This document shows, one piece after another, positions 6,532-40,100 of a stretch of 64,000 bases of DNA. Source of the stretch: Armigeres subalbatus (lineage: Eukaryota; Arthropoda; Insecta; Diptera; Culicidae); the NCBI RefSeq assembly GCF_024139115.2, contig NC_085140.1, positions 459,575,506 to 459,639,505 of the forward strand, written 5' to 3'. The stretch's first letter is position 1. Every line of letters begins with the position of its first letter. The notes under the pieces were generated by a model. That model did not search any database, was not told where the DNA came from, and saw nothing but the letters and a program-made list of their open reading frames with translations. The position numbers and the translations under genes were made by a program.

Positions 6532-6806
6532 GACCAATGCAAGATCTTGATTTAACCTCACTTATTTGACAGTTCACAGAGCTTGTTTACAAGGTGTTAG
6601 AAGAAAAATCGATGAGGAGAAAATTAAAATTCATATTTTTAGTTTGAAATTGCTGCGATCCGAATATTTCAATGATATTCTTTGCATTCAGCATGAAATC
6701 AATAGCAAAGGACATCTACATGCGAATAAAATGACGAAGCAATTTTATCGGAAGCTCCGCTGAAAAAGCTCTGTGAACTGTCAACCTACGTCATCATGCA
6801 CTGGTC
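6532..6806. mobile_element. MITE, GACCAATGCA family, copy 1 (nested in hAT)
   Basis: Ends are GACCAATGCA and, reading in from the right, GACCAGTGCA, flanked by TA at 6530-6531 and 6807-6808. Further inverted similarity includes TTGACAGTTCACAGAGC near the left and GCTCTGTGAACTGTCAA near the right. A second copy lies at 29057. No coding capacity. Confidence 0.85.
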
Positions 6807-9272: not shown

Positions 9273-9993
9273 GAACGAACTGAACGTCAAACTTCAAGGT
9301 AAAAACAATTTGGTTCACGAACTGTTCCAGTATGTGAGAGCTTTTGAGACTAAGTTGCGATTATGGGAAATTCAATTGAAAAATCGCGATTTTTCTCATT
9401 TTTTGCTATGGCTACTTGCTCCATTGGCAACACCGAAATCTACGTTGACATGGTAGTGACACTGAGGGAAGAATTTCACAACAGATTCAATGAAATTAAA
9501 GCGAACGAGCTAAGTTTGAAGATTTTTTCCACGCCATGGTCAGTTGAGGTAGAAAAAGTTCCAGGTAAATTGCAGCTTGAATTGATTGAATTACAAACAA
9601 ACTCAGTTCTTGAAGACATGTTTCGGAAAGTTGATTCACTCGAGTTCTACTCAACATATATTACTGCAGAAAAGTATCCGGAACTACGGAAACACGCATT
9701 ACAGATGCTGTCGTTGTTCGCCACAACATACTGCTGTGAACAATTATTTTCGAATATGAAAAATGTTAAGTCAAAAGCCCGGAATCGATTAACAGATGAT
9801 CATTTGGAAAAATTGCTCAGAATTTCTTCAACCAACATAACTATTGATACTGACAAGCTTACCAAAGCGAAAAGTACTCAGGCAAGTTAAGCAAGTTATT
9901 AAATACCCGAATAATGTACAAGTTTGAATTAAATTTTTAGAGAATACTCGCAGAAATAAAATATCCACTGTATATACAAAACAAATAAATATA

Positions 9994-10209
9994 GGGGAAC
10001 GGTTCGCCACTTCATCTCATAGCTCCTATTTCCATCCCATCAAAAACAAAGTAATGGAATGGAATTTGGTTTGCTTATTATTTTTATGATTTTTTTCAGC
10101 AGTGAGCACGCATATTGACCAAAAGAAGCGACGAATTTGGTGCCGTATTTCTTTGTTTAGCGATGAGATGGATATATGTACAGTGAGATTGAGATCGGAT
10201 CAGTTCCCC
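9994..10209 (+). mobile_element. 216-bp MITE, GGGGAACGGTTCG family, copy 1 (nested in hAT)
   Basis: Begins GGGGAACGGTTCGCC and ends GATCAGTTCCCC, with TA on both sides. Shared internal landmarks with the other copies are CATCCCATCAAAAACAA and GCGACGAATTTGGTGCCG. Three more copies lie at 28574, 32424 (reverse) and 50538. Confidence 0.9.
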
Positions 10210-10383
10210 TAAATAAACTTTTTAGTTATGCTATGTTTCAATTTCTATCGTAATTTATGCCCTTTGAAAATTCTAAATGAAAAGATCAATTTTCTTGAAT
10301 ACATATACTGCGGCCCGTTTTAAGAGTTCAGAACTGCTGTGCGGCGCTTGAGAGCTGGTATGTTGGGGATCACTGATCCACGA

Positions 10384-14770: not shown

Positions 14771-15017
14771 AATTCGTAATAGAAAATGTTTTGGCTATGA
14801 AAAGTTGATTTTAGAGGCTCAGTTTCTTTGGAGAAAAGTTTCAGTATGTTAAGCTTCATATTACGGAAAATTTTTTTTTTGGCTTATCCCCCTAAAAGTG
14901 AGATGGAAATTCTCTTTCCTTCAATTATGAAGATACATCATTGGTGTCTTCTAGAAAGTTGTAGAAAAAGTTTCTACGAAAAATTTTGCTATATAAACTT
15001 TATTTCTATCTGCTATA

Positions 15018-16261
15018 GAAGTCAAGATATGGGTCGTTATTTATGAACGACCACCAAAAATCAGGTTTTTCACGATACTTTCGTCAATATATTTTTTAGA
15101 TTTTTCAAATGTTCTACAATGATCTCCGTCGCGATAAAAAAACATGAACCTTTCGAAGACAGTTTCTTCTTATTTTCAATATTGACGAAGTTATTGACGA
15201 TTTTTTGTTCAAAAATGAGCATTTTGACATCTACTGCATACATGTAGGGGCAAAATGGAGCAGAATTTTAATTAGGAGATTGAAAGTATAACTCAAGCAC
15301 TAACGGTTGCATTGCAACATATATGTGACTTAGCTTGCCGTAAGAACCGTATGGATATTTTTTTCTTCTTCAGAAAAAATATTTTAAGCTCTTTTTAGTG
15401 GAATGTATTCAACCGTCTAAGACGAGTTAAGTACTCTCCATTTAATTCCACCAATTATTTCGATATTTTTGCGCGATACGTATTTCGACCACACAGATAT
15501 CGAAATAATTGGTGGAATTAAATGGAGAGTACTTCCCAGGTAACCACTTGCACTTTATTTCGCCTTTTCGGCTATATAGGGCTATAAAAGAGCCAGTATA
15601 AAGTTTGTTAGCTATGTGATAGCATTTTAGTCGCACGTAAGGCTTATTTTAATGCTTACGGTTACCTGGGTTAACTCGTCTTAGACGGTTCTTCTTATTG
15701 TTAGATATAAAAATGAATTGGTCTGTATTCCGCATAACTAAGAAACTGCTGGGTTCAAATTTCTTCATCACAATTTCCGATGGGTTTATATAATATTGTC
15801 TTATATAAAAGTCATGACTTAAACTGAAAAAATATGAAAAACTTAAATTAGAATTTGTATGAGTATTTTGTATAGGCAGATCACAATACGCATTCTCACC
15901 TACTGTGCAAGACAACGTCTGTCGGGTCATCTAGTTCATGATAATAACACTTACGTCAGACCTATGTCTGTCTTTATGTCCAAATTTTGAAAATGATTAT
16001 CGAATCGACGGATATTTTACAGAGAAATGCCAACCCTAAATGTATGCAGTTAATGTCAAAATGATCATTTTTGAACAGAAAATCATCAATACCTTCGTCA
16101 ATATTGAACATAAAATGAAACTATCTTCGAAAGGTTCATGCTTTTCATCGTGACGGACAACTTTGTAGAACATTTGAAAATTAAAAAAAAACATATTGAC
16201 GAATGTATCGTGAAAAACCTAAATTTTGGTGGTCAAAATAACGACCTATATCTCGACTTCT
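15018..16261. repeat. Fold-back element with about 230-bp inverted arms
   Basis: Left arm 15018-15249 and right arm 16034-16261 are imperfect reverse complements. Landmarks are ACCACCAAAAATCAGG against CCTAAATTTTGGTGGT, and GAACCTTTCGAAGAC against ATCTTCGAAAGGTTC. The right arm stops exactly where the RTE fragment begins. A smaller fold-back (15411-15690) sits between the arms. Confidence 0.75.
15411..15690. repeat. Nested palindromic element with perfect 20-, 38- and 11-bp inverted pairs
   Basis: Outer 20-bp ends at 15411-15430 and 15671-15690 are perfect reverse complements. A perfect 38-bp pair lies at 15429-15466 and 15497-15534. An 11-bp pair (CCCAGGTAACC) lies at 15535-15545 and 15660-15670. 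A diverged relative is at about 39848-40012. Absence of mutations between the arms suggests recent origin or repair between arms. Confidence 0.85.
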
Positions 16262-16590
16262 TCGTAACTTTGAGAGGATGGAGGAAGCCTACATCAGACT
16301 GAAAAGCGAAGCTAAACGGATTGGACTAGTCATCAAGTACATGATAGGAAGAGGCTCAAGAGAGGTCAATGTAAGCCACCCACCACGAGTTTCTATCGGT
16401 GGTGACGAAATCGAGGTGGTTGAAGAATTCGTGTACTTGGGCTCACTAGTGACCGCCGATAACGATACCAGCAGAGAAATTCGGAGGCGCATAGTGGCTG
16501 GAAATCGTACGTACTTTGGACTCCGTAAGACGCTCCGATCGAATAGAGTTCGCCGCCGTAGCAAACTGACTACCTACAAAACGCTTATAA
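16262..16590 (+). pseudogene. RTE-clade LINE fragment, left part (split by the 15.2-kb unit)
   Basis: Reads MEEAYIRLKSEAKRIGL, then EVVEEFVYLGSLVTADNDTS and TTYKTLI, the post-catalytic part of RTE reverse transcriptase. It is 5' truncated, as usual for LINEs. The reading stops mid-codon at 16590 and resumes in frame at 31806-31809. Confidence 0.88.
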
Positions 16591-16814
16591 GGGACCATCC
16601 AGAAACCACGTGGTCATATTTTTGAAGATTTTCAACCCCCCTCCCCCCATGTGGCTTATCGTGGTCATTTGGCAGACACCCCCTCCCCCCCCTATGACCA
16701 CGTGGTTTTTTTCAAGTACAAAAAATAATAAAAAAACATTATGTAACTAAAACATATGGTAAATCCGATCAATTTTGAAGATGGACAATTTCAATTGATT
16801 CAAAATCAAACTAA

Positions 16815-16966
16815 GGGGTCTTTCAAAAATGATGTCACAGGTTTTAGGGGGGGAGGGGGTCTAAGATTTTGTGACAGCACATGTATTAGGTATACAACAA
16901 AACGTGACAAAGGGGGGGGGGTCTAGAAATCCCAAAAAGTAGTGGACGTCATATTTGAATCACCCC
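16815..16966. mobile_element. 152-bp Harbinger-like MITE
   Basis: The ends are GGGGTCTTTCAAAAATGATG and, reading inward, GGGGTGATTCAAATATGACG. TAA flanks at 16812-16814 and 16967-16969. Non-coding, with G-rich tracts. Confidence 0.85.
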
Positions 16967-16969
16967 TAA

Positions 16970-18649
16970 ACCCAGCATGGAAATTATAAATTTTCATGTA
17001 AATAGTCGAAAATTTTGAAAATGTTATCATGTTGTAATGTGCATCAGGTATTAGGATATCTAAAACTCGCACACCTTTAATGCATCAGGAGGATACAAAA
17101 AAATGTGGACTCGCGAATATCTTATAAAAATTTCGAGAAAAATTTATAATGGTTTAGAAATTTCCCAAAATATCCCTATATTTTTATTTTTTTTTAATGT
17201 TTTTATTAGTGTTTTCTATAAATAACTATAAAGTTTGTAACCGTTGGTTTCAATTATAGTTTGTTGGCTCCTCCACAAACATCCTCGTCACTTATCACGC
17301 CTGCCAGGGAGATCCCAATACCCACACCCTATTAAAAAAAAGAATAAAACTGACAGCCTCACTGGCGGTTGAATCATTAGCTGTCTAATGCAGAGCAAAT
17401 CGCTATTACGCTAATACCACTCGTTACCTTTCCCTTAGGATAATTTATTTACAGCGGTTTGAGAAAGAACGTAACCTATTTCTCGTATGTAACGTCAGCT
17501 GTCAGGTCCCTGCGCGGAAGGGCAGCCAACCTTTTAAATCTGGGTTGCCAAACTTCGTAAAGTGTCCAACTTCGGAATAATTTCCACGAAGCAAAATTGA
17601 TAAAACTAATTGCAGCAAGACATTGAGCCTCTTTCCGTTCTAGACTATTCAGATAATAGTAGTGCGCGTCGTGTATCTCAAACAGTAGTGTAAATGTTAA
17701 AAAATTAACAATAAGTAAGGTGTATAATAGTGTTATGTGTTTTCTCTTTTAGATTCTATAAAATACTGAAAAAGTTAAGCCTAATAGTACGGAAAGTTTA
17801 AATTAGTACGGTTGTTCGTAGAAAGTACGGTTAGTTTCAAAACCAACAAGAAAAAGTGATTATTAGTGCTAGCATCTTAATCGGTTTCTTTGTTCTATAG
17901 CTTCACAATAGACCCATAAAAAACGGGAATTGTAAAAAACAAACAGAACAGTATAAAGAAAAGGTAACTACTTGTAAGAAAAGTTGAACTGTTAGGGGTG
18001 GCATGAAGAGAGAGATGACAATTAATAGGTGTACTAATTCCGGCATTAGGTCCAGATCTGGGCCTTTTCTTTCCGTTTTCCTTTGGTTTGAAATCCCGGA
18101 GGTATTCTTCTCTGTATCCACAGTTTCCTGGACCAGCCAAGCCGTAAAGAGAGTGAGCAAATACCGTGCGGTAGTGGAACCTACCCCCCCTCCGATACCC
18201 ATCACCCGGCGGCGCCCATTTTGGAAATAAACGTCTTCAGGACCAAGTCGCCACCTACCAGGTCCCCAGCGGCCATTTTGACGACTAAAATCAACCAATT
18301 AAGGGATCGGACACACCACGTTTTGCTCCTCGAGTCTGGATACCGGGCTGGTACCAGTGAAAGCCTTCTCGACGGTGAACCATCGTCACAAACTGGATTT
18401 CGGTTCAAATCGGACTTGCTAGAGGCTCCAGGAACCTCCGAACAACCCTGGCCCAGCGATCGTACACCCAGCTACGCCCTTTGTACCGGTTTGGAATCGG
18501 TGACTGGATGCAAATCACCAGCCTGCCCCCACCACAAGCAAGCCTTCATCTGCAACGCCATCGACCATTCCACGCTGTCGTCCACCGAACCCAGGCTCTC
18601 GCCGGCAACGCCGTCGGCCTATCCACGCCGCCAGCCACAGCAATCAAGC
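16970..18649. other. Unassigned sequence, GC-rich from about 18150
   Basis: 17240-17780 looks like a repeat terminus or LTR but no partner is found. 18150-18660 is Ser/Pro coding-like on the plus strand (for example 18221-18661) and the theme resumes beyond the LINE at 22945-23250. It may be a leader or gag-like part of a retroelement split by the LINE. I do not recognise it. Confidence 0.3.
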
Positions 18650-18999
18650 TTTCGCCATCAAGTAGTAGTAGTAAAATTCTTCTTTATTTAAAACATGTTT
18701 TGTTCTACAATCATTTTTATACATGTACAGTGATCGGCCGGCTTGGCCCTCCAACTTCAATTTCAACTATTGTTATTATTATTATTATTATGCTATTACT
18801 TAATTTTTAAAATATAATGTATCATGACGGCCTTTAGGAGGCGCTGGTGTGTTTTTTAAAATTTGATAACCTAACTACTATGTACACTAATATTTACAAT
18901 AAAAAAATTTGATAACCTAGATTGGAACTAGCGCCCTAATTGGTGCCTGATCCGAATGCAAGCAACGGACCCTAAACTTTTCTTTACACTCACCAAAGC

Positions 19000-21598
19000 G
19001 TTCATGTAAGGTTTTTATTCCGGCCAGACGGTGGACCTCGGATGTTCTTGTCCTGGGAGGGGTGTTGAGGATCATCCTCAGGAATTTGTTTTGGACCCGT
19101 TGAAGTTTGAGGGGGTGGTTTTAGCGCAGCTCTCCCAGACCGGCATGCCATATTCGATCACAGGGAGGATGATTTGCTTGTAGACAGCAAGCTTATTTTT
19201 CAGGGACAATGACGACCGACGGTTGATCAAAGGGTACAGTAGTTTCAACAAGACGTTACACTTTGTCACCGTTTTGTCAACCTGTTGCCTGAAAAATAAG
19301 CTTTGCTGTCGAGGGTCAAGCCAAGGTAGCCGGCCTCATTGGCCCATTCCACAGTCGTGCCATTGAGGATGATTTTACAGTCCCCAGGCGGAACAAGTTT
19401 AGGGGATTTGGAGTGGGGAAAATGATGACCTGGGTCTTCGCCGCGTTGATACAGATCTTCCAGCTGGTGAGGTACTCTGTCAGGGCATCCAGGCCTCGTT
19501 GGAGTTTTGCCACTAGCGCTCTGATCACTCTACCGTTGTAGACGATGGATGTGTCATCTGCGAACAGAGACAGAATGCCGCCTTCTGGAGGTTCTGGCAT
19601 GTCGGAGGTGAACAGATTGAAAAGCAGGGGCCCGAGGATACTGCCCTGGGGAACGCCTGCGACGATGTTGTGCGCATTGGAACTCGCTCCGCTGATTGAG
19701 ACCCGGAATGTCCTTGCCGACAGGTAATTGTTGATGATTTTCACCAGGTAGCTGGGAAGATTGTAGCGTTGTAGTTTGTACACCAGGCCATCATGCCATA
19801 CATTGTCAAATGCCTTCTCGACATCGAGTAAGGCCATGGCGGATGTTTTCGAGACAAACTTGTTCCGTCTGAGGACGTTGGTAACTCGGGTCAGTTGGTG
19901 TACAGTTGACTGACCGCGTCGGAAACCAAACTGTTCCTCGAGCAAGATGTTGAGATTTTCGGCAGACTCAAGTAACCGATGATGAATAGCTTTTTCGAAT
20001 AGCTTGGATAACCCTGAGAGAAGGCTGATGGGTCGATAACTTTGGGGAGGAAGGATCCTTCCAGGCTTCCGGATGGGGATGACTTTCGCTGACTTCCAGG
20101 ACGATGGGAAGTAGCTAAGCCGGAGACACTGATTAAAGATCAGCGAGAGGTGCTTAAAGAACGGAGCACTCATGTGTTTGAGCTCGAGATTCAGGATGCT
20201 GTCGAAGCCTGGGGCCTTCATGTTCTTCGACGATTTGATATAGGCCGTCAATTCGTCAGCTGAGATCTCCAACTCCTCCGAGAAGTCGTTGGGAATCAAA
20301 TGGATGTTGTTAGCATGCTCGTTGACGGCTGCTTCGTGTGGACTGACGATGTTCTGTCCAAGATTGTGTGAGCTGACGAAGTGACGACCTATTTCAGCGA
20401 CCTTCTCTGCAGGAGTTATCAAGCGATCCTTAGAGCCATTATTGTCTGAGTGGGATCAAAGGTGGAATGGGCTGAGGCTTGGATTTTAGAATTTTGGTCA
20501 TTTTCCAGAACGGCTTAGCATAATCTGGGAGAGTGCGGATCTTATTCGAGAAGTCGTTATTTTTGAGGTCCACCATTCTGGCCTTTGATAATTTTGTGAT
20601 TCGATTGCAGCGTGCTTAAGCTCAGGCAGTCCAGTACGCTGAAACTGCCTGCGAGTGACATTCCGCAATCGAATCAAATCTTTAGTGAGTGTATCGATGT
20701 TTAAGGAGTTGCTTACCTGCCGAGCCGTCGGTACGTGTTGCTCTCGGGCCGCCGTGATCGCCTCCTCGATAGCGCACAGCTGGCGGTCGATACTTTCCGG
20801 CGTCTCCGGACGCACCTCGTAGTCGACGGTGTTATCGACGCACTGCTGGAAACGCTGCCAGTTCACTCGGTGGTAGTTCCGCCGTAACTGCTGGTGCCGA
20901 TTGACCGAGGAGCCCAGTTCCGCCACCACCGGATAGTGATCCGAACTGAGCTCCTGGTATACAACCGGCTGCGAGACGTGGTCACTCAGGTTTGTTACGT
21001 AGAGGTCGAGCGTTGCGTGGGCACCGGACCGACTCAGCCGAGTGGGGGAATCCGGGCTCAGGATCGTGTAGTGGCCTTCCTCCATGTCGTTGCTCCAGAT
21101 GGTGCCGTTTCGATTGCCGCGACTGTTGCCCCAGGCTTGATGTTTGGCATTCAAGTCGCCGGCAATGACATACTGGCCTTCCCTCCGCGTCAGCTTGACG
21201 ATGTCCCTCCGAAGGGCAGCCGATGATCCATCGCCGGCTTTGGCTTGCGTTGGACAGTACGCCGCGATGAGCGCGATTGTGCCGACCGAAGTGGTGATTT
21301 CGACACCGATGGCCTCGATGACACTGAGCTGGAAGCTTGGAAGCAGACGACAGTTGATGTTGTAGCGAAGAGCGATGGCCACACCACCTCCCCTGGTCGG
21401 CCGGTCGAGTCGCACGATGCGAAAGTCCGGGATGTTGATGTTCACCTCCGGTTTTAGGTGCGTTTCGGTGATGAACGCCACGTCTATTTCCTTCTCCTCA
21501 AGGAAATCCTTCAGCTCGATTGTTTTGCTCTTTAGCGAGCAAGCGTTCCAGTTGACCAGGCCCACCCTAGCAGCCATTTTCAATGATGAACATGCCAA
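19000..21598 (-). pseudogene. LINE ORF2: endonuclease and reverse transcriptase, frameshifted
   Basis: 21598-20498 is the apurinic endonuclease: VNWNACSLKSKTIEL, FITETHLKP, GDLNAKHQAWG and SSDHYPVVAEL. A frameshift near 20450-20500 leads to 20422-19316, the reverse transcriptase, with YRPISLLSGLSKLFEK, QFGFRRGQST, AGVPQGSILGPLLFNLF and the catalytic SLFADDTSIVY. Another shift near 19290 leads to 19269-19078 (NKLAVYKQIILPVIEYGMPVWE) and a C-terminal tail to about 18940. Motifs are well preserved, so decay is modest. Confidence 0.92.
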
Positions 21599-22805
21599 GT
21601 GTGAAGACCTGGTCGAATCGGGTTTTGCAGCCGCGCAGTCGAGTGGCGAGCTGCGCGAAGATCGGCATCAGTTGCTCCGGAGTGTACAGCGGGCAGATTC
21701 TTCCGGTGGGACGGCTTCGTTCTCCGACCGCCGACGGAACCCAGGAGGAGGAAGCGGGGCCATTCGCTGGGGGATGGTGCCGAAGATGCTGGAGCTTGGA
21801 CCGATGCAGCTGCCGCTGCCAGTCGCTTGTGCGGCTGTAGCGGTGTGGGAGTTTTGGAATCACACGGGGAGCCGGGATGGCTGGAAAGTTCACCTCGTTG
21901 ATTACAGGAACACTGTTCTTCTTCAGGATGGTCCTGGTGGAAGCCTTCTTCCGGATTTCCAGGAACTCGGCTCGCTTTGGGCAGCCCTTTGTGGTGGCCC
22001 GATGTTTGTCGCCACAGTTGGCGCACTTGGGATCGGCCACCTCCATTTTTGTCGCACTCGTCCGTCCGATGGGGTTCGCCACACTTGTTGCAGCGCGGCT
22101 TCATGCGGCAGTTCCTGGTGCCGTGCCCGAAATTGAAGCAGTTGGTGCATTGCGTGACATCGCGGTGCACTGGCCGATATCGCTCCCAGTCAACGACGGT
22201 GTAATTTATAACGCCAACCAGCTTCAGGTCCTTCCAGGTAGTGATGGATCAGGTAAAGCTGGTCGCGATATTTCCTCGCCTTGTCGTGACGAGCGATCTT
22301 GTGGACGGCTACTGGCTTCAGTCCGCAACTTTCAAGCTCTGCTTGGAGCTCTTCCTCCTTCATGTCGTGAAGTCCTCGCAGCAAAGCCTTGAGCGGCTTC
22401 GTGCCGGGGTGGTCATGAGTGTAGTACTCATACTTGTGGACCTCGAGGAACTCCACGACGGATTGATGATGGTCCCTGTTGGCCGGCATCACTTTCACGC
22501 CCTCGCTGCAGAGCCGAAAAGTACATTTCAGCCCCTTGGCGATCAGCTGGCGAATTTTTGGGCGTAAATCCGGCGGATCGCCCTTCACAAACACGGGCGG
22601 GCACTTCTCCTTCCGCTCCGGTTGCACCTGCGGCAGCTGCGATTGCTGCTTCTTCCTCTTCTTCGGCGGATTGCCGGCGTCATCAAGCAGCAACGGCGAG
22701 AACACGTTGCTCTGCAAAAGCTGCTTGGAGGGGTACCCGCGCCTCCAAGAGCAGTGCGCTTAGGCACTTTTCCAGCGACCGAATCGGCCACCGAGTCTCC
22801 CATGA
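21567..22805 (-). pseudogene. LINE ORF1: gag-like RNA-binding protein with zinc knuckles, frameshifted
   Basis: Likely start is MGDSVADSVAGKVPKRT at about 22803. One indel near 22735 shifts the frame to the 22717-22190 segment, which has a basic NPPKKRKKQ stretch and the Jockey gag-associated region (LKALLRGLHDMKEEEL, VHKIARHD). CCHC knuckles follow, read in two frames: CTNCFNFGHGTRNC, CNKCGEPHRTDEC and CANCGDKHRATTKGC. The stop at 21567-21569 overlaps the ORF2 start, the usual arrangement in this clade. Family role: binds element RNA. Confidence 0.85.
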
Positions 22806-22956
22806 CGGGTCCGGGAGAAAATAACGCCAACGCGACAAGCGAAAACTTAAACAGCGAAAGAACGAGAAAAAACACTTCGAAGCGCGAGCAAAAAACACGT
22901 CCGTACGTGTTGCTGTCTCGAACTGGAATGTCGTTCATGGATGATTTCGCCATCAA

Positions 22957-23656
22957 CCGCCGTAATCAAACCCTCGCCAGCATCGCTATCGACCAAACCT
23001 CGTCGTCAACCGTCGCGACCAAGCCCTCGCCAGCAATGCAATCGGGCCATCCTCGCCGTCAGCCGCCGCCATTAAGGACTTGCCGGTAAGCAAAGCCAAC
23101 GACCTCTCCTTGTCGTCGAGCACCGAGGTCAAGCATTCGCCAGCAACGTCAGCCTGTCAGCACTCTCCGAAGATCACCACCCCGCATGCATGCCACCGTC
23201 CACCAAGCTAGCCAACGAACACCACCACCCAGAAAGCGCAAGTACACCTATTCCAATGTATGTCTCTCTCTCTCTAGGGCCCAGTAGAGGCCAAATAAAT
23301 ATAAGTATGTAAAATGTAAATTACGGTGGTCAGTTTCTTTTAGAAAGACACCATAATAGCCTTTATACACCCTTTTGCTATTTTGCTCGCTCTTCCGTGC
23401 CCAAAAGGGGGCAATCAAGCCTCGATCTTTTTAGTCTGCTGGATAAGAGTGAATTCTACCTTGCTTTTCAACACTTTTGCTTCTGGAATTTGGTCGGTTT
23501 TCTCTCCTCGTTCAGAACTGATAGCTGTCGAGTCGATTCCAGCTCCTGCTAAAGGTGAGTTGCCTAGGAAGTTTGTGTAACGGTGTTATTAGCGTAAACG
23601 ACCCCATGCTCAGCAGAATTTCCCCACCCACTGCATCCCGATTGAGCAGCTGAGAG
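22957..23656. other. Unassigned flank of the LINE
   Basis: 22957-23250 is C-rich and resembles 18540-18650 in composition and wording (CGCCAGCAA, GCCGTCAGCC). A CT repeat at 23264-23274 is followed by CAAATAAATATAAG. No gene is identified. Confidence 0.35.
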
Positions 23657-23999
23657 CAGGGATGCCAGATGATATTTTCATATGTCTTCACAGTCGTTTA
23701 AAAATGTCTTCAAATATCTTCAATATTAAAATAATGATTATCAGCGAGAAATTTCAAAATCTAATAGGTTTGTAAATTCTTGTTTTACTGATGTGGAATA
23801 ATGTTTATTTTTTAACATACAAATTGTTAGAATTCAAGAGAATATTCTTTAAAATTCTTTAATTTTTTTATAACGAGTTTCCCTGGATTTTGTACTGAGT
23901 CGGATTTTTAACTGAATTTTCACGTGAAATTCTTCCAAATTTCTTTTTAAAGAATATCCTGTTGGGATTCAAAATTTACTGTGAAATACTTGAAGAAAC

Positions 24000-24860
24000 A
24001 TCCAGAGAATTTTCTGAAGGAACTAGAAAATTCTAGATCAAATTCCGGATAAATTTCTGATGGAGCTTCTTATAACTTATACTAATTTCTTTTGGATGGA
24101 GCTTCTAATTACTTCTGGAAGTCTCCTGAAGAAATTTCCCGAGGAATTCCTGTTGGAACATCCAAAGGATTTACTGAAGAAACTTCCGGAAAAAGTTCAG
24201 AAGGAACTTCCGGAGGAATTCTTGGAGGAACTTAAGAAGGAATTCCTGTAGAAACTTCAAGATGAATTCCGGAGGTTTTTTCTGGAGGAATACCTGTAGG
24301 ATTTTCCTGAAGAATTTCTGAAGGATATTCCTGAGGAATTGCAGAAGCAATTTCCGTTGAAATTTCTGAAGAAACTTCTGGAGAAATTCTTTGAGGTAGT
24401 TCTGGATGAATTCTTGGAGGAGCTTCTTGAGGTATTGCTGCATAAATTTCCCAAAGAAATCCTGGAGGAAATACCAGATAAATTTCATAGTATACTTCCG
24501 GAGGCATTCTTGGAGAGTCATTCGGCAACTTTCTTCCGGAGGGATCCCTTGTGGAGCTTCCGCTGCAATCCCGGGAAAACTTTCGGAAAGAATCCTGGAA
24601 GAACTACTGGAGGAATTCGTGAAGGAACTACCGAAGGAGTTCTGGAGGAATTTCTGGAGGATCTTCCAAATGAATTCCTGGAGGATTCTTCGGAAAACTC
24701 CTGAATTTTTCAGACAATTTCCTGGAGGGATTACAGAAAGAATATCAGGACGATTTTGAAGAAATTCTTAGAAGAATTCGCAGATAAAATACTGGAAGAA
24801 TGTCCAAAGATATTTCTAGAAGAATAATCAAAGGAATTCAAGGGAAAAAATAACGAAAGT
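24000..24860. repeat. Degenerate tandem repeat, strict 12-bp period
   Basis: Units resemble CTGGAGGAATTC. From about 24128 to 24490 some thirty consecutive 12-mers can be laid out with no indel although most differ in several bases. Long Leu/Glu/Phe/Lys-rich readings therefore stay open on both strands (24060-24251 and 24339-24704 plus; 24171-24521 and 24232-24528 minus). I treat these as by-products of the repeat, not genes. Confidence 0.85.
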
Positions 24861-25047
24861 GTGTAGCAACTTAGCAAGCTTCCTCTGAATTTCTTTTAGG
24901 GACATTTTTCTGTAGAAATTTACCTTGAAAATGATGAGAAATATCCATTTAACACCAGCATAATTTCAATTTCTTATCGACATTCGTAAGAATTTTTTAA
25001 TGAAAATTAATTGGAACAATTTTCTTGTGGAAATTAAAAGGGATTTA

Positions 25048-25258
25048 AAGCCTGTCCACGTTAAATTTCGGACACCCATCTTCCAATGCGATTTTTTAAA
25101 ATTTTCACAAACCGCAGAGAAGATCAATTTTCGCATAGCTGAATCTATCCGCTTTATGTGATACATTTAGCACGTTTTCATCTTCGTCCAAATTGATAAA
25201 ATGGCTGAAAAACATTTGGACATTATCTCAGTGTCCGAAATTTAACGTGGACAGGCTT
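25048..25258. mobile_element. 211-bp mariner-like MITE
   Basis: The first 28 bases, starting AAGCCTGTCCACGTTAAATT, are repeated as an exact inverted copy at the right end, with TA at 25046-25047 and 25259-25260. It lies inside the hAT-like element, so it is younger. Non-coding. Confidence 0.92.
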
Positions 25259-26029
25259 TATTGTGGGAGTTGTGGAAATCAAGATGAATTTCTTTCTTGG
25301 AGGATTTCCTTTATATCTTTTTTACGGAAATTATTAATTTTAAATTTTGTACTGAATTTCCAATTTCAATTCTCTTGAATGTAGACAAGAAATTCCTCAA
25401 AATTTTCATCGGAAATTCTATTAAAAATTCACAGAAAATTCAAAGAGTTTCCTGTCGTACATTTAGAGGAAAGTCACATGGAAATACCGAAAAGATCAAA
25501 TGAATTCGTAAGGAATTTAGAAAAAGATCAGGTTCTAGCTCAACGGTTGAATAGATTAAATCAAGTCATAGAAGAGTTCAATATAATTTTGCCGTAAATT
25601 AGATCGGTCATTGGGTTCCGATGTAATGATCAAAATACCTTTTTACATACACGCCATCGGGAATTTTTTAACCAGCGCTCAACTCCAAGTTAAGTTCGTA
25701 TGAGGTCTAAAATGCGTTGCATTTATCAGCCAGCTAGTGTGAATGTATTTTCATGTTTGAGATTCTCAGCCCCAGACAAAGACTATTATAACTTTTGTTT
25801 TTTTGTATTATTTACATTTAGAAGTCGCAGAATTTATATGTAAAAAATAAAATTGTAATTGCCACTCGCTGGCTTATTGATTGTCTTCAGGTGTCTTCAA
25901 ATAAGTAGATAAGTCTTGAAATATTTTGAAAAGTCTTCAAAATGTCTTCACGAAATAAATGTCTTCACAGAGATTCAAAAGTCTTCAAATTGAAGACATG
26001 TCTTCAAATCTGGCATCTCTGGCTGAGAC

Positions 26030-28571
26030 CTACAAGTTCATCACTGAATAGTGAATAGCCCTATAGATTTCTTAGAGTATTTGGGACCTTCGATAGCTCT
26101 GGAGCTACTGGAAATTCTTAAGATATTAACCTCAGCGAAGCATCTGAACTGAACTCCTACAACGAAAAGTTTATCAGAGAATCACAAAGTTAATATGTAA
26201 TCTTAAAATAAATAAAACCTCCTACTGTTGTTTCTTTTCAGTAGCATTCCTGTAGAAATTTCAGTATTGTTTTCACATCATCAATATTAGAAATAAATAA
26301 TTATAATTTTTTTTTTAATTGTTCATTGCTAATACTGATTTATTCATGAAAATTTTGTATTTTTTCGTTGAAATTTTGATTTCTTTATGGACAATTCTCG
26401 CTTAACTTTTTAAAAGGACCTAAGTAACATTTTTTTTTACAAGTGCTAATTTATTATTGTTGTGTGTATTATTGTTCTTTATTGGCAATTTCCTATTTTA
26501 TTATGGAAAATTTCTATTTTTTTCTCTACTAAAAAGATTTTTAATCCAGAGCTGGCTCTCTCAAAATTTCTAATTCTACATGGAAATTTTATTTTGATAT
26601 CGACTCGTGGAAGCCAATGATGCCATACTAAACATATTTTCTCGGTCACTCTGATGGTTCTTTCGAATAATTTCCCAAGGAACTTCAATTACATACCTCG
26701 AATATGCTTCAGTCAATGGTCCTTTCATAAGCGACTCATTGAGGAATGAATGTATTATAGACCAATTATTATTTTGAAGTTCGGATCATTCGATTTATCC
26801 AATTAACCAGCTTATGAATGATGTATGATATAATATCCCAGTAGGCCCATTGGTTTGATATGACTTCAATTATTATTTATACAAGCTACTACAGACTTTA
26901 TAGGTTACACAAAACGTCTTGGAAGTCGTAATGTTTGAAGTACTTGATCATTCAAGTCCGTGAAACCAGTGCTTCTAATGCCCTATAAAAACAGTTTGCA
27001 AACAAACCTCATAGTCATTGCGCAACTTGATGTTGACTCAAGATAATTTTGGGTACCTTGTTTCTTGGATCTCATGTTAATGGAAATTAGGATCATGTGC
27101 TTATTTCATCGGATAGGGTATATACCGAAGATGAGAACATTGCAAATGTCTTGATTGATCTGGTAGATTCGTGGGCTGAACTTGAGAGCATTTTGAAGTA
27201 CCTCGAGCATCTCGTATTCCTGAATATTAATCACTGGCTTAACGTTCAGGATGGCCCATCTTATCTGACCATGGTCAGTCAAATTTGAGCTCCCATATTT
27301 TTTCTGTAAAGCCAATATCTAGATGAACAATTTTTCTGATGAAAATGGTGGCCTAGCTCTCTTTTGTGATTTTATAGAAAATCTAAAACGCTGGGCATAT
27401 ATGACCCATCATTCCTGAAAGGGTTGAGATTTGTTTTGGAATTCAATTTCAATCGTTATTATAACACTATTTTTTAACCTAGATTGTTTTAGGAATTTGA
27501 GTGTTTTTTTTCTGGAACACTGCCACCTTTTTTTCATATCGCAGGAATCTCCTTAGTTCTAAGACCCTTTTATGAATTTAAAAATTTTATTTAGAATTTC
27601 ATGTTGATTTTTTAAATGCAAGCTCTCTATGTCATAACCTTTTTTATACGCACCACTAGAATTTTGTGCATTTAGAACATTTAGGTACATTATTAATTTT
27701 TTCGATCATTAATTATTCAATACCATAAAAACTAGGCTTCTTAAGCCTGCCTAAATTATTGCCTACATTTATTGCTTGGATTAATTTTAAATTCCAAGAT
27801 CTTCTTAATTTTCAAGAATAATTATTCTGGAGTAGCAAGGGAAACCCTTCGGAAAATCTTCAGAATTTCAACGTTATTTTTTTCCGAAATTCTGTGGAAG
27901 AGTTCCGAAAAATGTTCGATAGAAATTTTGAAGAACTAGAAGAATCCGTAGAAGGATCCGAAATGCATATTTACGATGAAAATTCCAATAAACATCAAAT
28001 TCCGAAGAATTTCCAGTATAAATTAGAAAAAAAAAACAGCTTACTTTTTTACAGAATCTCTAAAGATTTTTTTTCAAAATCCTGGGCAACTTTAATGAAT
28101 CTTCAAAGGAAATTCTTTTAAATTTCCAATGGGTTTTTTTTTCGTTTTGCAAAAGAAATTCTTAGAAATTTTCAGCAGTTTTATTTTTAATTTCCAAAAG
28201 AAATTATTCGGAATATGCCAAATTATTTCCGATGGAAATTCCTAAGATTTTCCAGTAGAAAATCGAAAAAAGTTCGTCTGAAACAGATTCGGAAGATCTT
28301 GTCGAAGAAATTCATTAGAATGTTTTTCCACCGAAAATGATATGTATTTCCCACGGGACTGTTTTTAATTTTCAGACAGAATTCACATGGATTTTTTTTC
28401 GGAGTTTTAAGGAAAATTTTTCGGAATTTACACTGGAGATGTTTTGTTTTTTTTTTCATTATCAATTTGTAGCAAAATTTCCAAGCAAAATTTTTCAGAG
28501 AAAATTGTTCAAAAAAAATTCTGAATCAGGATTGTATGAAGTAATGTCAAAGTTTTTACAGCAAATTTATT
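26030..28571. other. Gene-free, AT-rich; partly decayed 12-bp-type repeat
   Basis: 27830-28560 is full of GAAATTCC/GGAATTTCC-like words, similar to the tract at 24000-24860 but more decayed. The rest shows no structure I can name. ORFs here are low complexity. Confidence 0.5.
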
Positions 28572-28573
28572 TA

Positions 28574-28789
28574 GGGGAACGGTTCGCCACTTCATCTCAT
28601 AGCTCCTATTTCCATCCCATCAAAAACAACGCAATGGAAAGGAATTTGGTTTGTTTATTATTTTTGTGATTTTTTTCAGCGGTGAGCACGCATGTTGACA
28701 AAAAGAAGCGACGAATTTGGTGCCGTATTTCTTTGTTTAGCGATGAGATGGATATATGTACAGTGAGATGGAGATCGGAACACTTCCCC
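28574..28789 (+). mobile_element. 216-bp MITE, GGGGAACGGTTCG family, copy 2
   Basis: Same length and landmarks as the copy at 9994, with TA at 28572-28573 and 28790-28791. Confidence 0.92.
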
Positions 28790-29056
28790 TACTTGATTTT
28801 TCCTCCCTGGGCTTTGGATTATAATTCTTCACAAATATTGATATATTTTAGGAGAACTGTAATCTGTGCTGGTAGGAGTCTACGAACTGGGGGTTGGAAT
28901 CTATTTGAATACACATGAAGAAAGTGATATAGATTTTGGGAATTGAATTGTAAGTTCGTATACTACTATTCGGTTTCCTCAATGACCGACAGGGTGCGTG
29001 CTACATGTCGCGGATATAAGCTAAGGGAGGTGTGGTACAATTCGACTGAATTTATA

Positions 29057-29348
29057 GACCAATGCAAGATCTTGACTTAACCTCAATTATTTGACAGTTC
29101 ACAGAGCTTGTTTACAGGGTGTTAGAATTAAAATCGATCAGCTGGAAATGAAAATCCGTAATTTTTGTTCAAAATCGTTTTGATCCGAATATTCTAGTGA
29201 TATGCTTTGATTCCTACCATAAATCCACTACAGCAGACATCAATATTCTTAATTAATCGCAAAACAGTTTTTCCGGAAGCTGCTCCAGAAACTAAGTCCT
29301 TGTAAACAAGCTCTGTGAACTGTCAACCTACGTCATCATGCACTGGTC
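29057..29348. mobile_element. MITE, GACCAATGCA family, copy 2
   Basis: Ends GACCAATGCA and, inward from the right, GACCAGTGCA with TA flanks at 29055-29056 and 29349-29350. Longer than copy 1 (292 against 275 bp) by internal indels. Confidence 0.88.
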
Positions 29349-29350
29349 TA

Positions 29351-31699
29351 TTGAATAAAGAGCCTTTTAATAGTCAGTCAATTGTGCTTAGCCTCCTATT
29401 GTGTTGTAACTGAATAATGTCAAAATAGGTAATCGATACAGACACCTCCTTTCACAACAATCTATAATTCATTTGAATGTATTCAACATTGGCTCCGTAG
29501 CTTAATGTCCTATGCGACATAGTTTTGAAGATACTATTTAGCTGATCCAAGTCTAGCATCCTGTACTAGAGAGTTACTTTAGACTTATCATAATTTTATC
29601 GTAGTCAACGTTTATGTTAAAAATAAGTTATAAAATAAAGTGCTCATTATTTCCTGCTAGATCAGTTACAAGACAACGTGGACCACATTGAGGAAAAATT
29701 ATTCAATAAATCGATATTATCGTCGAAAGGCCCAGCTATGCTGTAACCAAATTAATCACTTATTATATAAATCTCTAACTGAAATTAGAAAAAACAAGCT
29801 ACTTAATTAAATCCGACTGATATTAAATATAACACTACACTAATTTGAGAATCCCATTTAAAAGAACCTCATAAATAATAAAATGACATTTACTAATATC
29901 CATTCTTTTCATTATTTTCCTCACTATCTAACCCGATCTCAACTATAATAAATTATGATGGAGCTTCGAAATTAAGAAGACTCCGAGCCAACACCAAATG
30001 CAGCATGATCCTACTAATATCGTCAGGAATCGGAAGAATCTGAAATCTGGTAAACACTTATTAAAGCTAATAAGTGGTAAGTAGATAGAAAGAATACATA
30101 CATGGTAAGTGCAAATAAATTATAAATTTATCATATTTTTATTCCATTGCGTAAATGTATATATCATATGTGTTTACTTTGTAAATGATAACCGTACTTT
30201 GCTTATATATATGCACATTTGTGAAAAACGTATATATGTTTCTGTGAGTGTGTGTGTATATTATATTAAAACAATAACCAATTGATTTAGGAAATAGGTG
30301 GAAAATTATGCTGAAGTGTTGTTTAGGATGGTTACTGAGAAGTGCAAAATATAGTTGATGTAAAAATTGATATAGCGGTGTTGGCAGTCATGGGTGAAGT
30401 GAATTAAGTGAATCGACTCATCATTAAACACACGACTGCAATTTATGTTCAACAAAATCGTGAGCAGTGACTTATATACTTATTAATACTATGTTTGCAC
30501 TACGGCCTGAATAACATGTTATTCAAATTATCGACAAAAGAAAGCTCATCGAGATAGCCGAATAACATGTTACAAGGCCCTAGTGTGAACATAGTATAAG
30601 TCGTGACGTGAATTTGGAAAGGTTGAACGGAATTATGAACAAAGATGGTGCCGACGATTTAGTAATTTGGTTTGACCATTTGGTGATTTTCGGTGACTCG
30701 TTTCTGAGGCTGGTTTCCTGCTTAAGGGAGTTAAGATAGTGGAGAAGTTGTGAATGTGAAGAAAGAACGATACGGTGATAGTGACCGCAATAATTTTCGG
30801 TGATCATGATGACTATGTTAACATTAACGTAATGATAGTAGGTGAATATGATACGTGATTTCATTGCTTATACTGGGTAAAGAATGATTCGTAGTGGCAG
30901 AAAAACTTATATACTTTTGTAAAGGTAAAGAAGAAGAAAAGAGTGATGTTGATATTAGTGATGGTAGTTTGACAATACTAAGTGCTTATAATGATGGGGG
31001 TGGGCTGTTATACAAATCCTTATTTTCATCAACACGGCCCATAACAGTGACCACATGAGCAACATCGCTCAGGAACGTCTGTGTGATGATGAAAAACGTG
31101 AGGCTCGTAGAAGCCAATATGGGCGGGGTACAGTGTAGATTAATAGCAAGGGACAGCTGCCATTGTAACTACCACAAAAAAAAATAAATAAAAAATTTAT
31201 TTACTTGATTTTTCCTGAATATCCACAAGAAATTCTTTTGAATTTTTTTTTTTAAGATTTTTTCTTGGATTTATTGTAAAAACATGAACATTTTTCAAAA
31301 TTGAAGCTGCAGTCCGCTGATGCAAAAGTGTCGGCGGCGTGATGCAAAAAAACATCCGCGGTGGATTTTTTTAAAAATATTTTTCCATTTTTTCTTTTCC
31401 AATTTTTTTTTTGTGGAAATTGAGACTGAATGGCAACCTGTTTTTTCGTTTATTTTTGTATGAATATAGGATCTTAGGCTAAGATGGTCAAATAATGCAG
31501 ATATGCATCGGCGTTGCGACCGACACTGCGTTATCGTTTTTTCTCGATGCACACCTACGTATTTTTAACGCTGAGTTGTAAAGACGCTACGTAGGCATCG
31601 GCCCTTAGATGCGCTTTGCGTTTAATGATTAAATCATCGAATTTTAATGATTTATATTTTTTACACCGCTATTGTTTTTCACCAAAAGTTTTTCGTGTA
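29351..31699. other. Gene-free AT-rich interval
   Basis: Apart from the 106-bp MITE at 30489 I see nothing nameable. A GT run lies at 30245-30258. No ORF carries a recognisable domain. Confidence 0.5.
30489..30594. mobile_element. 106-bp palindromic MITE
   Basis: CTATGTTTGCACTACGGCC at the left and its near reverse complement (GGCCCTAGTGTGAACATAG) at the right, flanked by TA. Both ends also share the inverted motif ATAACATGTTA. Confidence 0.8.
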
Positions 31700-31805
31700 A
31701 AAAAAACCACGTGGTTCGAGAGCAACACCCCCATGTGGCTTATCGTGGTCATTTTTCCAAACCCCCCTCCCCCCATATATGACCACGTGGTTTCTGGACG
31801 GCCCC

Positions 31806-32260
31806 TAAGACCGGTAGTTCTCTACGGACACGAGACCTGGACGATGCTCGTGGAGGACCAACGCTCCCTGGGAGTTTTTGAAAGGAAAGTGTTGCGTACC
31901 ATCTATGGTGGGGTGCAGATGGCGGACGGTACGTGGAGAAGGCGAATGAACCACGAGTTGCATCAGCTGTTGGGAGAACCATCCATCGTCCACACCGCGA
32001 AAATCGGAAGACTGCGGTGGGCCGGGCACGTAGCCAGAATGTCGGACAGTATTTCAATGAAAATGGTTCTCGACAACGATCCGACGGGCACAAGAAGACG
32101 AGGTGCGCAGCGGGCAAGGTGGATCGATTAGGTGGAAGATGACTTGCGGACCTTCCGTAGACTGCGTGGTTGGCGACGTGTAGCCATGGACCGAGCCGAG
32201 TGGAGAAGACTCTTATATACCGCACAGGCCACTTCGGCCTTAGTCTGAATAAACGAAAAT
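31806..32260 (+). pseudogene. RTE-clade LINE fragment, right part (3' end)
   Basis: Resumes the frame left at 16590: RPVVLYGHETWTMLVEDQRS, then LLGEPSIVHTAKIGRLRWAGHVARM and RRRGAQRARWID. An in-frame TAG follows RWID near 32129. The C-terminal tail then reads VEDDLRTFRRLRGWRRVAMD to about 32248. It is the end of the same 5'-truncated RTE copy as 16262-16590. Confidence 0.88.
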
Positions 32261-32423
32261 GAAATTGTATGGGAGCCCCCCTTTCCAAAGCGGGGAGAGT
32301 TCTCAAACCATCTCAAGCACCTTCCCCGGCCCCAAAAACCTCTGCATACACATTTTCTCGCCGATCGGTTCAGTAGTTTCGGAGTCCATAAGGTTCAGTC
32401 AGACTGAAATTAATTTTTATGAA

Positions 32424-32639
32424 GGGGAACTGTTCCGATCTCCATCTCACTGTACATATATCCATCTCATCGCTAAACAAAGATAAACGGCACCAAATTC
32501 GTCGCTTGTTTTTGACAACATACGTGCTCACCGCTGAAAAAAATCACAAAAATAATAAACAAACCAAATTTCTTTCCATTGCTTTGTTTTTGATGGGACG
32601 GAAATAGGGGCTATGAGATGAAGTGGCGAACCGTTCCTC
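32424..32639 (-). mobile_element. 216-bp MITE, GGGGAACGGTTCG family, copy 3 (reverse)
   Basis: Inverted copy beginning GGGGAACTGTTCCG and ending CGAACCGTTCCTC, same 216-bp length, followed by TA and preceded by AA where TA is expected. Confidence 0.9.
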
Positions 32640-32649
32640 TATATAGATT

Positions 32650-36726: not shown

Positions 36727-37108
36727 TCATTCCTGCTTGATACCACCGGATGCCATCGGATGGTGCGGCGGGTAATGGGCAGGTAGGTTCCCACTGGACA
36801 TGTTCGGCAGCTGGAACATTTCACTGCTTCCGGACGAGTGCGTGGGGCTTTCCATACCGTTGGGAGGGTTTATCCGCTTTTCTTTCTGGCGCCGATTGCA
36901 GAACCATACCCGTACGACTTCCTTCTCCATGCAGAGGTTGTCGGCTAGGTTGGTGATTTCTTCGCTGGTGGGTTTGCTGTTGACGAGGAAGGCCTTTTCG
37001 AGGGCCACCCGGACGGAGGTTTCGATCGAGGTGCGTTTCTTGCGTCGACGGCCAACCATTTCCGGCGTTGGCGTCGTGCTGGCTATGGTGCTCGGGCTGA
37101 AAATTCGA
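36727..37108 (-). CDS. nub: nub/pdm terminal exon, POU homeodomain and C-terminus
   Basis: The acceptor is CATTACAG at 37109, after a 128-bp intron. A 19-residue linker ([19 protein letters not shown]) precedes the 60-residue homeodomain at 37050-36871. The homeodomain has the basic RRRKKR start and the recognition helix with [12 protein letters not shown]; Cys at homeodomain position 50 marks the POU class. The C-terminal tail of about 47 residues is Ser, Pro and His rich and ends GGIKQE before TGA. The tail is short but in the usual range. No frameshift or stop is present. Confidence 0.97.
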
Positions 37109-40100
37109 CTGTAATGATACAGGAAAGGACAATCGTTAGATATTTGCGTGCAATTCCCGAATCCGTATATGACCCGGTTTTTGAAAAATACAAAAGACTG
37201 ACTGACTATAGTTTGCTTATTGTATAAAACACTCACCCGCCAGGGTTGGAGATGCTGCTGTCGGCGTCCTCGAGCCACTTCTGCAGTAGCGGTTTCAGCT
37301 TGCACATGTTCTTGAAGCTCAGATTCAGCGCCTCGAATCGGGAGATGGTGGTCTGGGAGAAATCGTTTCCGTACAGCTTACCCATCGCCAGCCCGACGTC
37401 GCCCTGCGTAAAGCCGAGCTTTATCCGCCGCTGCTTGAACGTTTTCGCGAACTGTTCCAGCTCTTCCAGGTCGGTGGTTTCCTCGGGCGATGGTTCAAGA
37501 GCACGCGGTGCAGCGTTGTGCTTCTGCAGCTGGGGAGTGTGGGCGTTCGAACCGGGCGTTGATGGGGTGAGAATTCCGCCAACGTTCAACTGGTTTGCGT
37601 TGGGGGGTGTGGTTTGACTCGAGCCCAACAGCGATGAGTGCGCAGATGGATGGTGAAGTCCCGGACTTCCAGATGGACTGTGCAGAGGGGATGAAGACGA
37701 AAGGTTTCCTGGAGTGGGGGTAGAACTGGCTTTCAGCTGTTGCTGTTTTTGTTGGAGAGCTTGCAGTTGGGCAACAGCCTGTTGAACCTGAGAATTTAAG
37801 GATAAAAAAGTTATAGGTAAATAAGGTCTATTAGTTGATACAACTTTAGATTAGGAAGAACCTAACCTGAAGAGACCGTGATCCATCGTGCGTTAATTTA
37901 AGCTTTGTGGTGGAAGCATTACTGGGCACACTGTTTGATATTGTGGAGGGATTTGTGATGTTAGTAGAGACGCTAGTAGCACTGTTAGTGATTGACTGAG
38001 GTGGAGTGGGAAAGCTTGCAGAAAGCTACAATCCAAAAAGAGATCGAATATAGACATATGGAGAAAGAAAAGTGGTTTAGGTGGTTGGTTGTGGTACTAC
38101 AGGATCGATAGGAGCTATAAAATTTGTAATTACCTGATTTTGCATGAGGAATTGGGCGGCAGCTTGAGCGGTAGCCTGGGCTGCGGCATTTCCATTTCCT
38201 CCAACATTGCCTTGAGCTTGCATAAGCATGTAGTTTTGCAACTGTTGCTGGAAAGACGCCTGTTGAGCTTGCAATGCTTGCTGTAGCACATTTAATTCCT
38301 GGCTGGAGAGATTTCCCAATGTGCCCAGTCCCAGTTGATTCTGCAGGAAAAGAGATCCCAGTGGAAGCTGATTCTGGAGGGCGGCCAGTGCAACACCAAT
38401 ACTACTGCTACTAGGACCGCCTACAGACGTTTGCTGAGGTGGGGAGGGTGTTCGCCTGGAGGCGTCAGTTATCTGTGGACGACACGAAGAGAAAATGGTT
38501 AAATTAAATTCCGAAATTTGTTTACCAACCCCGGTAGGAGCAAATATTGACTAACGAAGTCTAAATTGATTCACTCACCAGGTTGAGAGGAGTAACTCGG
38601 TCCGGCCGCTCATGCGGAATCGGACTGCCGAGCTGGTCACGGTCGCTTCCATCCTCGCGATCGCTGTAGTTGTCGTCTGCAAAGGGGAGAAGAAAAAGGA
38701 CAAGGTGTTAAAATCCGACATCTTAAAAAAACGCCCTACAATAGTGAAGGCCACGTGCTGAGAATTTGTCGTTAATGACCTAGTTAAGGAAACATCTCAT
38801 CTATTGAAAGCCATCCAGAATGACTTTCTCCCGCCGGTACAATCGAGAAGTCACTGCCGACAAGGAAAACATTCTTTAGCCGAGTGCATTGTATGCACAA
38901 AAGCTTCAACCCCTTGTGCAGGAGATGCAGCATAACATATGAGAAAAGATGGAATCATTTTTAAAATAGCGAGCTATGCTGCGATGGGAAACCGAATGCA
39001 CCATACACACGACGAGGGGAATTCCGTAAGGGTTTAAAATCAAAACACGCATTTAACCAATCAAACGGCGATTTTCGTGTCGTGGTGGCACAACGTTTCG
39101 GGCGAACGTCGCAGCAGGCGTTGCGAATTTGTTCCCTTTATGTTGCACACGTAGTAGGCATGGAAGCATAGCAGAGGGAACATTTGCTCTATGATGCTGC
39201 TGTTTGGTGATGAAAGAAGGGTTGCTGTAACCGACTTTCATGATGACTGATGATGATGGTGGTGATGATGATGATGAAGATTTTTTTTTGTGTCATTATG
39301 AATTTGATGAAATTTAGCTGGTAAGGGTGCGTTTTTTGGGGTATCGAGAATGAATTCGCCAACACTGTAACGTTTTTTGTTACTTGGTCAACGTGACCTA
39401 GGATAATCTTATTTTCGTAGACTTGCACTATTTTCATTTGTTATTTGCACAAATCTGGGCCGATTGACGTATGCAAACGTGTTTGAAGTTCAAATGTTTA
39501 GCGATATATTTTAGGAAATGCAATGATTAATTTTGGTGTACCAAAAGGAAAGCAATAAAGTGGTGACATATTTTGTTTTCATTGTTTGAAGAGGCAGAGG
39601 CAGAGGCAGTATAAATTATAACAACAAATAGGTCATTTTTTATTATCTTAAAAACGGTTATTAGTTCGAATAAAAAAATGTTTGAGTTCAGAAGCGATGA
39701 ATTGTAGAAAACTCAACATTTTCCTAAATTAAACACCCCAATTTCACAAGAAAATAAGGGAGAATTTCCTCCGGAAAATCAGAAAAAAATCTCGTAGACG
39801 ACTCAAGTACGAAACAGTAATCTCACTAAGAAAATTATTTTGAGATTTTTAGTGGAATGTCTTTACTTGTCATAAGACGAGTTTGTACCTTCCCATTAAA
39901 TTCCACCACTTGATTGTACCTTAACAGATACGCATTTCGTACTTCACTCGACTTACTGTTGAAATTCGCATCTGTGAGGTAACAATCAAAAGGTGGAATT
40001 GAATGGGAAAATATCAACAAAATATCAGATTCCGTTTTCTTTGTAAAAACGATTAATAAAATTATCATATTGGCAGATATGTAATTTAGAAAATCCGTTT

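What the first reader, a model, noticed from the sequence alone, without database searches (positions are those of the whole stretch)
16591..31805. 15.2-kb DNA unit with inverted-repeat ends and TAA duplication splits one RTE copy
Seen: 27 of 29 terminal bases match as inverted repeats, TAA flanks both ends, and the RTE reading frame is continuous from 16590 to 31809 once the unit and one TAA are removed. Each end also resembles most of a short MITE and the two lie partly in direct orientation, like a composite transposon made of two MITEs. Known: a TAA duplication fits PIF/Harbinger. Inference: either a macro-transposition carried about 15 kb (LINE and hAT-like element included) between two MITE ends, or a MITE dimer grew by nested insertion. 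About 7.8 kb remains after subtracting recognised insertions and has no recognised transposase.
Basis: partly seen in the sequence, partly recalled or inferred. Interest (0 to 1): 0.75.

Follow-up and report, generated by a model that had tools for sequence, protein, structure and literature searches.

The report
Two-MITE unit inside an RTE copy
A 15-kb block of mosquito DNA, ending on both sides in the same kind of short transposon, jumped as one piece into an older retrotransposon copy; a 4.3-kb retrotransposon inside it looks like a separate later insertion, and how much DNA the original jump carried remains open.

Summary
At 16591-31805 the outer 29 bases match as inverted repeats in 27 positions, TAA flanks both sides, and removing the unit plus one TAA gives one open RTE frame that aligns gap-free across the junction with all nine homologs I aligned (of 120 listed). 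The two ends are also MITE-like in direct orientation. New here: both ends lack the same inner ~12 bases; the LINE looks like a discrete nested insertion, 18662-22944, with an exact 12-bp flanking repeat, and over its last ~1.2 kb 390 of 396 aligned codons equal those of one relative, so it is probably young. No transposase domain was seen in six frames of 16591-18660 and 23200-31805. Best reading: the unit entered once through its outermost ends, like a non-autonomous PIF/Harbinger element, and grew by nesting. Whether some 7.5 kb of unnamed DNA was carried in (macro-transposition) or came later could not be decided: the host genome was never reachable. 'Aedes' is unproven; the best named RTE match is Armigeres subalbatus (93%). 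A plausible member of a known kind, moderate interest.

The parts
16262..16590 (+). 5' part of a 5'-truncated RTE-type retrotransposon copy (start approximate)
   Evidence: open frame and homologs; an inverted repeat of 15017-15249 ends at 16261
16588..16590 (.). left TAA target-site duplication
16591..16619 (+). left terminal inverted repeat
   Evidence: 27 of 29 match to right end
16591..16708 (+). left end, MITE-like; lacks the inner ~12 terminal bases
   Evidence: direct alignment to right end, loss of match after 16708, foldback
16815..16966 (.). nested 152-bp MITE-like element with TAA duplication and imperfect inverted repeats
   Evidence: the scan found 3 such candidates in the window against 0 or 1 in five shuffles
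18650..18661 (.). probable 12-bp target duplication of the LINE, low side (second copy at 22945-22956)
   Evidence: only exact shared word of 9 or more bases between the flanks; directly abuts the LINE's 3' tail; 12-base words arose in 3 of 200 shuffles and the flanks are related repeats
18662..22944 (-). Jockey-like LINE (endonuclease and reverse transcriptase), nested
   Evidence: RVT_1 4.9e-37, Exo_endo_phos_2 4.9e-18; homologs; flanking repeat
23657..26021 (.). hAT-like non-autonomous element, 2365 bp, 8-bp duplication matching 7 of 8
   Evidence: no shuffle control run
25048..25258 (.). 211-bp TA-flanked MITE nested in the hAT-like element, first 28 terminal bases identical
28562..28791 (+). 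copy of a 230-bp repeat family with three more copies in the window
29053..29352 (.). about 300-bp repeat, 76% identical to 6528-6810
30487..30596 (.). 110-bp inverted-repeat element (TAA or TA flanks)
31704..31805 (+). right end, MITE-like, same orientation as the left; lacks the inner ~12 terminal bases
31777..31805 (-). right terminal inverted repeat
31806..31808 (.). right TAA target-site duplication
31809..32260 (+). 3' part of the same RTE copy (end approximate)

Best explanation
The unit is a non-autonomous composite transposon. Two MITE-like copies of one TAA-duplicating, PIF/Harbinger-like family lie in the same orientation; their outermost ends were recognised together once by a transposase supplied from elsewhere and pasted into a 5'-truncated RTE copy with a TAA duplication (shown: ends, duplication, continuous RTE; inferred: transposase in trans). 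Each copy lacks the same ~12 inner bases, as expected if the pair began as a MITE-TAA-MITE dimer whose central palindrome was lost (inferred). Afterwards the space between them was enlarged by nested insertions: the LINE is supported as a discrete nested insertion; that it came after the jump is inferred from its youth.
For: Outer ends and TAA; read-through RTE homologs across the junction, 9 of 9 aligned; direct similarity of the two ends far above 1000 shuffles; matched inner loss on both sides; LINE with exact 12-bp flanking repeat abutting its 3' tail and 390 of 396 aligned codons identical to P0121, 3 of the 6 differences being the first residues of P0121; the inner copy of the 230-bp family has 3 private substitutions in 226 columns, against 9, 9 and 28 in the three copies outside, so it too looks recent; the RTE copy has 6 private residues of 214 plus a stop and a five-residue gap; no transposase domain in six frames of 16591-18660 and 23200-31805.
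Against: About 7.5 kb of the interior has no named origin, and growth in place needs all of it to be younger than the RTE copy. The hAT-like element has a 7-of-8 duplication and imperfect ends, and the 29053-29352 repeat is only 76% like its other copy, which may mean older DNA. At the inner boundaries I see no direct target duplication of a first insertion (read). The LINE's 12-bp repeat lies among degenerate repeats and words as long arose in 3 of 200 shuffles. P0121 comes from an unnamed contig: if that is the same locus of the same species, near-identity says nothing of age; named LINE relatives are only 63-74% alike, and ORF1 and ORF2 show further frame breaks. No second copy or empty allele was seen. 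The ages compare different yardsticks with few differences.
Confidence: 0.5

Rival explanations
1. Macro-transposition: two MITE-like copies (perhaps partial) lay some kilobases apart at a donor site, and a transposase used the left end of one and the right end of the other to move the DNA between them, several kilobases or more, into the RTE. The LINE was added before or after.
For: Outer ends intact, inner ends incomplete, same orientation, unnamed 7.5-kb interior. Known to work for Ac/Ds: a 28-kb macrotransposon excised in maize (PMC9910405, passages) and as much as 100 kb moved by a Ds-Ac pair (PMC3260210, passage); en bloc movement proposed for an Anopheles P-element MITE (PMC1562414, passage).
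Against: Two independent insertions would be expected to keep their inner ends; losing the same ~12 bases on both would be a coincidence (inference). No donor site or second copy seen. Two dated interior pieces look recent.
Confidence: 0.27
2. A native long non-autonomous element: the 15-kb unit descends from one family with several kilobases of interior and ends that carry inner copies of the ACCACGTGGT motif as subterminal binding sites, later swollen by nested insertions.
For: The motif occurs exactly twice at each end and nowhere else in the window; the two inner copies with their T/A runs match each other in inverted orientation.
Against: A 66-bp stretch shared by the ends lies in direct, not inverted, orientation; beyond the inner ends the best local matches score 31 and 30 and are AT-rich (no shuffle control); no transposase trace in the stretches scanned.
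Confidence: 0.18
3. Assembly artefact or two unrelated RTE copies at the borders.
For: The LINE shows 5 frame shifts against 3 to 6 substitutions versus P0121, which suggests residual indel errors in this assembly.
Against: Exact codon-level continuity with TAA duplication and paired ends, gap-free homologs across the joint.
Confidence: 0.03

Closest known systems
PIF/Harbinger-type MITEs (TWA duplications; PHIS superfamily, PMC4482050, passages); an 'm3bp MITE' class is listed for Aedes aegypti in Table 1 of PMC3422177 (that m3bp means a 3-bp duplication is recalled)
   Same: 3-bp TAA duplication and terminal inverted repeats; ends start GGG (that PIF/Harbinger ends start GG is recalled; the passages say so for ISL2EU and NuwaII)
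   Different: 15.2 kb, two MITE-like copies, one at each end, each lacking inner terminal bases; the transposase was not identified
Ac/Ds macrotransposons of maize (PMC9910405, PMC3260210, passages)
   Same: outer ends of two neighbouring elements act as one transposon around unrelated DNA, one duplication outside
   Different: other superfamily with 8-bp duplications; there excision was observed, here only the static structure
AgaP2-P12 MITE of Anopheles gambiae (PMC1562414, passage)
   Same: ends from two copies, en bloc movement proposed in a mosquito
   Different: P-element derivative with ends of two subfamilies
TIME-COMPs of bacteria (PMC13367494, abstract)
   Same: two MITEs, in direct or inverted orientation, bound and mobilise the DNA between them
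   Different: bacterial Tn3-derived elements

Membership tests
PIF/Harbinger | TWA target duplication | tested here: met
   TAA both sides; TWA rule read in PMC4482050
PIF/Harbinger | terminal inverted repeats | tested here: met
   27 of 29
PIF/Harbinger | own DDE transposase and second ORF (autonomous member) | tested here: not met
   no Pfam match to a transposase in six frames of 16591-18660 and 23200-31805 (18661-23199, mostly the LINE, was scanned only as selected ORFs); so at most a non-autonomous derivative
PIF/Harbinger | mobilised by a PIF/Harbinger transposase | not testable with these tools
   host genome unreachable
NuwaII (PHIS) | C|TNA|G target | tested here: not met
   flanks read A-TAA-G; rule
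Macrotransposon | target duplication outside two element copies | tested here: met
Macrotransposon | pre-existing DNA carried between two elements | not testable with these tools
   needs donor site or other copies
MITE (each end taken alone) | both terminal inverted repeats complete | tested here: not met
   inner ~12 bases missing on both
MITE (each end taken alone) | high copy number | tested here: inconclusive
   no further copy in the 64-kb window at 11 mismatches or fewer that looks like an end; the 18-base exact pattern gave 0 matches in viral contigs; the relaxed pattern gave 1 viral and 15 prokaryote stretches, whose similarity is confined to 30 bases or fewer

The most novel reading that the evidence does not exclude
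A pair of PIF/Harbinger-like MITEs in direct orientation, their inner ends disabled by matching deletions, moved roughly 7 to 15 kb of mosquito DNA in a single transposition: a MITE-bounded macrotransposon in an animal.
Probability: 0.25. Interest if true: 0.55.

Novelty: new member of a known kind. Interest (0 to 1): 0.33.

Why it matters
If MITE pairs can carry kilobases in mosquitoes, their abundant MITEs become potential movers of genes and enhancers. This locus lies about 4.9 kb from POU-homeodomain exons and offers a clean empty-site test, because the target is a coding RTE frame. If it merely grew by nesting, it is an ordinary but well-ordered example of how repeats swell.

Tried and rejected
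Two unrelated RTE copies: rejected. Autonomous element: no transposase domain in 16591-18660 and 23200-31805; two weak matches (DUF445, DUF1661) were below their cut-offs. The LINE has its own RT and endonuclease. A simple TE insertion into the dimer junction: no direct duplication seen at the inner ends. LINE frame shifts as a clock: rejected, since 5 shifts against at most 6 substitutions look like uncorrected sequence errors. Extended homology inside the inner ends: only AT-rich matches (no control). MITE translation as a protein query: 1 candidate, none at E 10 or better. Collection scans: one search gave 0; two searches gave 1 and 15 stretches from viral and prokaryote records, similar over 30 bases or fewer, taken as chance. 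Paper searches; in the listings shown I noticed no eukaryotic two-MITE composite of this size, but the listings were capped and the library is partial, so this is no claim of absence from print. Papers: PMC3422177 parts 1-2 of 4; PMC1562414, PMC9910405, PMC3260210, PMC4482050, PMC3212995 passages; PMC13367494 abstract and outline; all others only in listings.

Full report
What was checked. The finding gives a 15,215-bp unit at 16591-31805. Its first and last 29 bases match as inverted repeats in 27 positions, it is flanked by TAA at 16588-16590 and 31806-31808, and joining the flanks with one TAA gives a continuous reading frame. The joined RTE protein (typed as a query of 214 residues up to its first stop) gave 327 hits at E 0.001 or better, 120 of them listed; the best, from Armigeres subalbatus, covers 100% at 93%. 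I aligned nine of the listed hits; all nine cover the junction and read through it without a gap. So the borders are two halves of one RTE copy. That copy is 5'-truncated, has a five-residue gap relative to homologs and one in-frame stop downstream of the junction, before the end of the homologs.

The ends. The two ends also resemble each other in direct orientation: local score 88 against a maximum of 32 in 1000 dinucleotide-preserving shuffles, while the inverted comparison scores 48 against 27. Both have a C-rich plus strand and a shared central segment. The palindrome ACCACGTGGT occurs exactly twice at each end and nowhere else in the window. On the inner side of each end, similarity to the full terminal repeat stops at the same point: of the 12 outermost bases only 3 match on the left and 1 or 2 on the right. 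The left end still folds on itself over 16 consecutive pairs in the centroid structure; 1 of 200 shuffles folds at least as well.

The interior. A Jockey-like LINE lies on the minus strand with reverse transcriptase and endonuclease domains. A search for exact shared words of 9 or more bases between its flanks found one, a 12-bp repeat at 18650-18661 and 22945-22956, which directly abuts the GTA-repeat tail of the LINE and so fixes it at 18662-22944. Caution: the DNA on the two sides consists of related degenerate repeats (69% over 120 bp; 53-bp tandem units), words with 2 to 4 mismatches recur there, and a 12-base shared word arose in 3 of 200 shuffles. Against P0121, a 401-residue protein from an unnamed 1324-bp contig that covers only the last ~1.2 kb of the LINE, 390 of 396 aligned codons agree; three of the six differences are the first three residues of P0121, and there are five frame-shift steps. 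More frame shifts than substitutions is the pattern of sequence errors rather than age (inference). Other parts of the LINE also show frame breaks and were not aligned this way. Also inside are a 152-bp TAA-flanked MITE-like element, a 2365-bp hAT-like element with a 7-of-8 duplication that itself holds a 211-bp TA element, a 110-bp element, a copy of a 230-bp family and a 300-bp repeat. A window-wide scan for TAA- or TTA-flanked inverted repeats found 3 against 0 or 1 in each of five shuffles; the scan had no control. Tandem repeats of 24 bp lie in the hAT-like element. About 7.5 kb (7552 bp) has no name. Six-frame Pfam scans of 16591-18660 and 23200-31805 gave no transposase; two weak unknown-function matches were below their cut-offs.

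Relative ages. The RTE copy has 6 residues of 214 that none of nine homologs share where most of them agree, plus a stop and a gap. The inner copy of the 230-bp family has 3 private substitutions in 226 columns, the three outside copies 9, 9 and 28. The LINE is close to P0121, but that contig could be the same locus, in which case the comparison says nothing of age. The two interior pieces that could be dated look as young as the RTE copy or younger, which fits later nesting; but the numbers are small, the yardsticks differ, and the hAT-like element and the 300-bp repeat (76% identical to its other copy) may be older.

Mechanism. Shown: one insertion through the outermost ends with a 3-bp duplication. 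Supported: a discrete nested LINE. Inferred: a transposase in trans of the PIF/Harbinger kind, whose duplications are TWA (PMC4482050, passages). The matched loss of inner terminal bases fits a former MITE-TAA-MITE dimer, whose junction would be a near-perfect palindrome prone to central loss; two independent insertions would be expected to keep their inner ends. Macro-transposition remains possible: it is documented for Ac/Ds in maize and was proposed for an Anopheles MITE.

Limits. The host genome could not be searched. Pattern scans of viral and prokaryote contigs gave only chance-like matches. The species is not known: the best named RTE match is Armigeres, and among the 120 listed LINE matches named ones reach 74% in Toxorhynchites, 63% in Uranotaenia and 50% in Aedes albopictus, so Aedes is not supported by these matches; the database holds clusters and listings were capped, so Aedes is not excluded either.

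Noticed in passing
window 36727-37850, minus strand: Complete POU domain (1.1e-38) and homeodomain (1.3e-18) matches of a host gene, nubbin/pdm-like by recall; the unit lies about 4.9 kb beyond their 3' side.
   Followed up: partly
window 19118-20058: Five frame shifts but few substitutions against a relative, near short homopolymers: probable uncorrected assembly errors in a young repeat.
   Followed up: partly
window 9354-9890, plus strand: hAT dimerisation domain (1.3e-9), remnant of a hAT transposase.
   Followed up: no
window 53588-54427: Array of similar segments of about 150 bp or more, with related pieces at 54733-55487.
   Followed up: no
window 9982-10211, 28562-28791, 32423-32649, 50536-50758: Four copies of one 230-bp GGGGAAC-ended repeat, 82-94% alike.
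   Followed up: partly
window 22947-23069 and 18529-18648: The DNA beside the LINE carries 53-bp tandem repeats, and related sequence lies on both sides of the LINE.
   Followed up: partly
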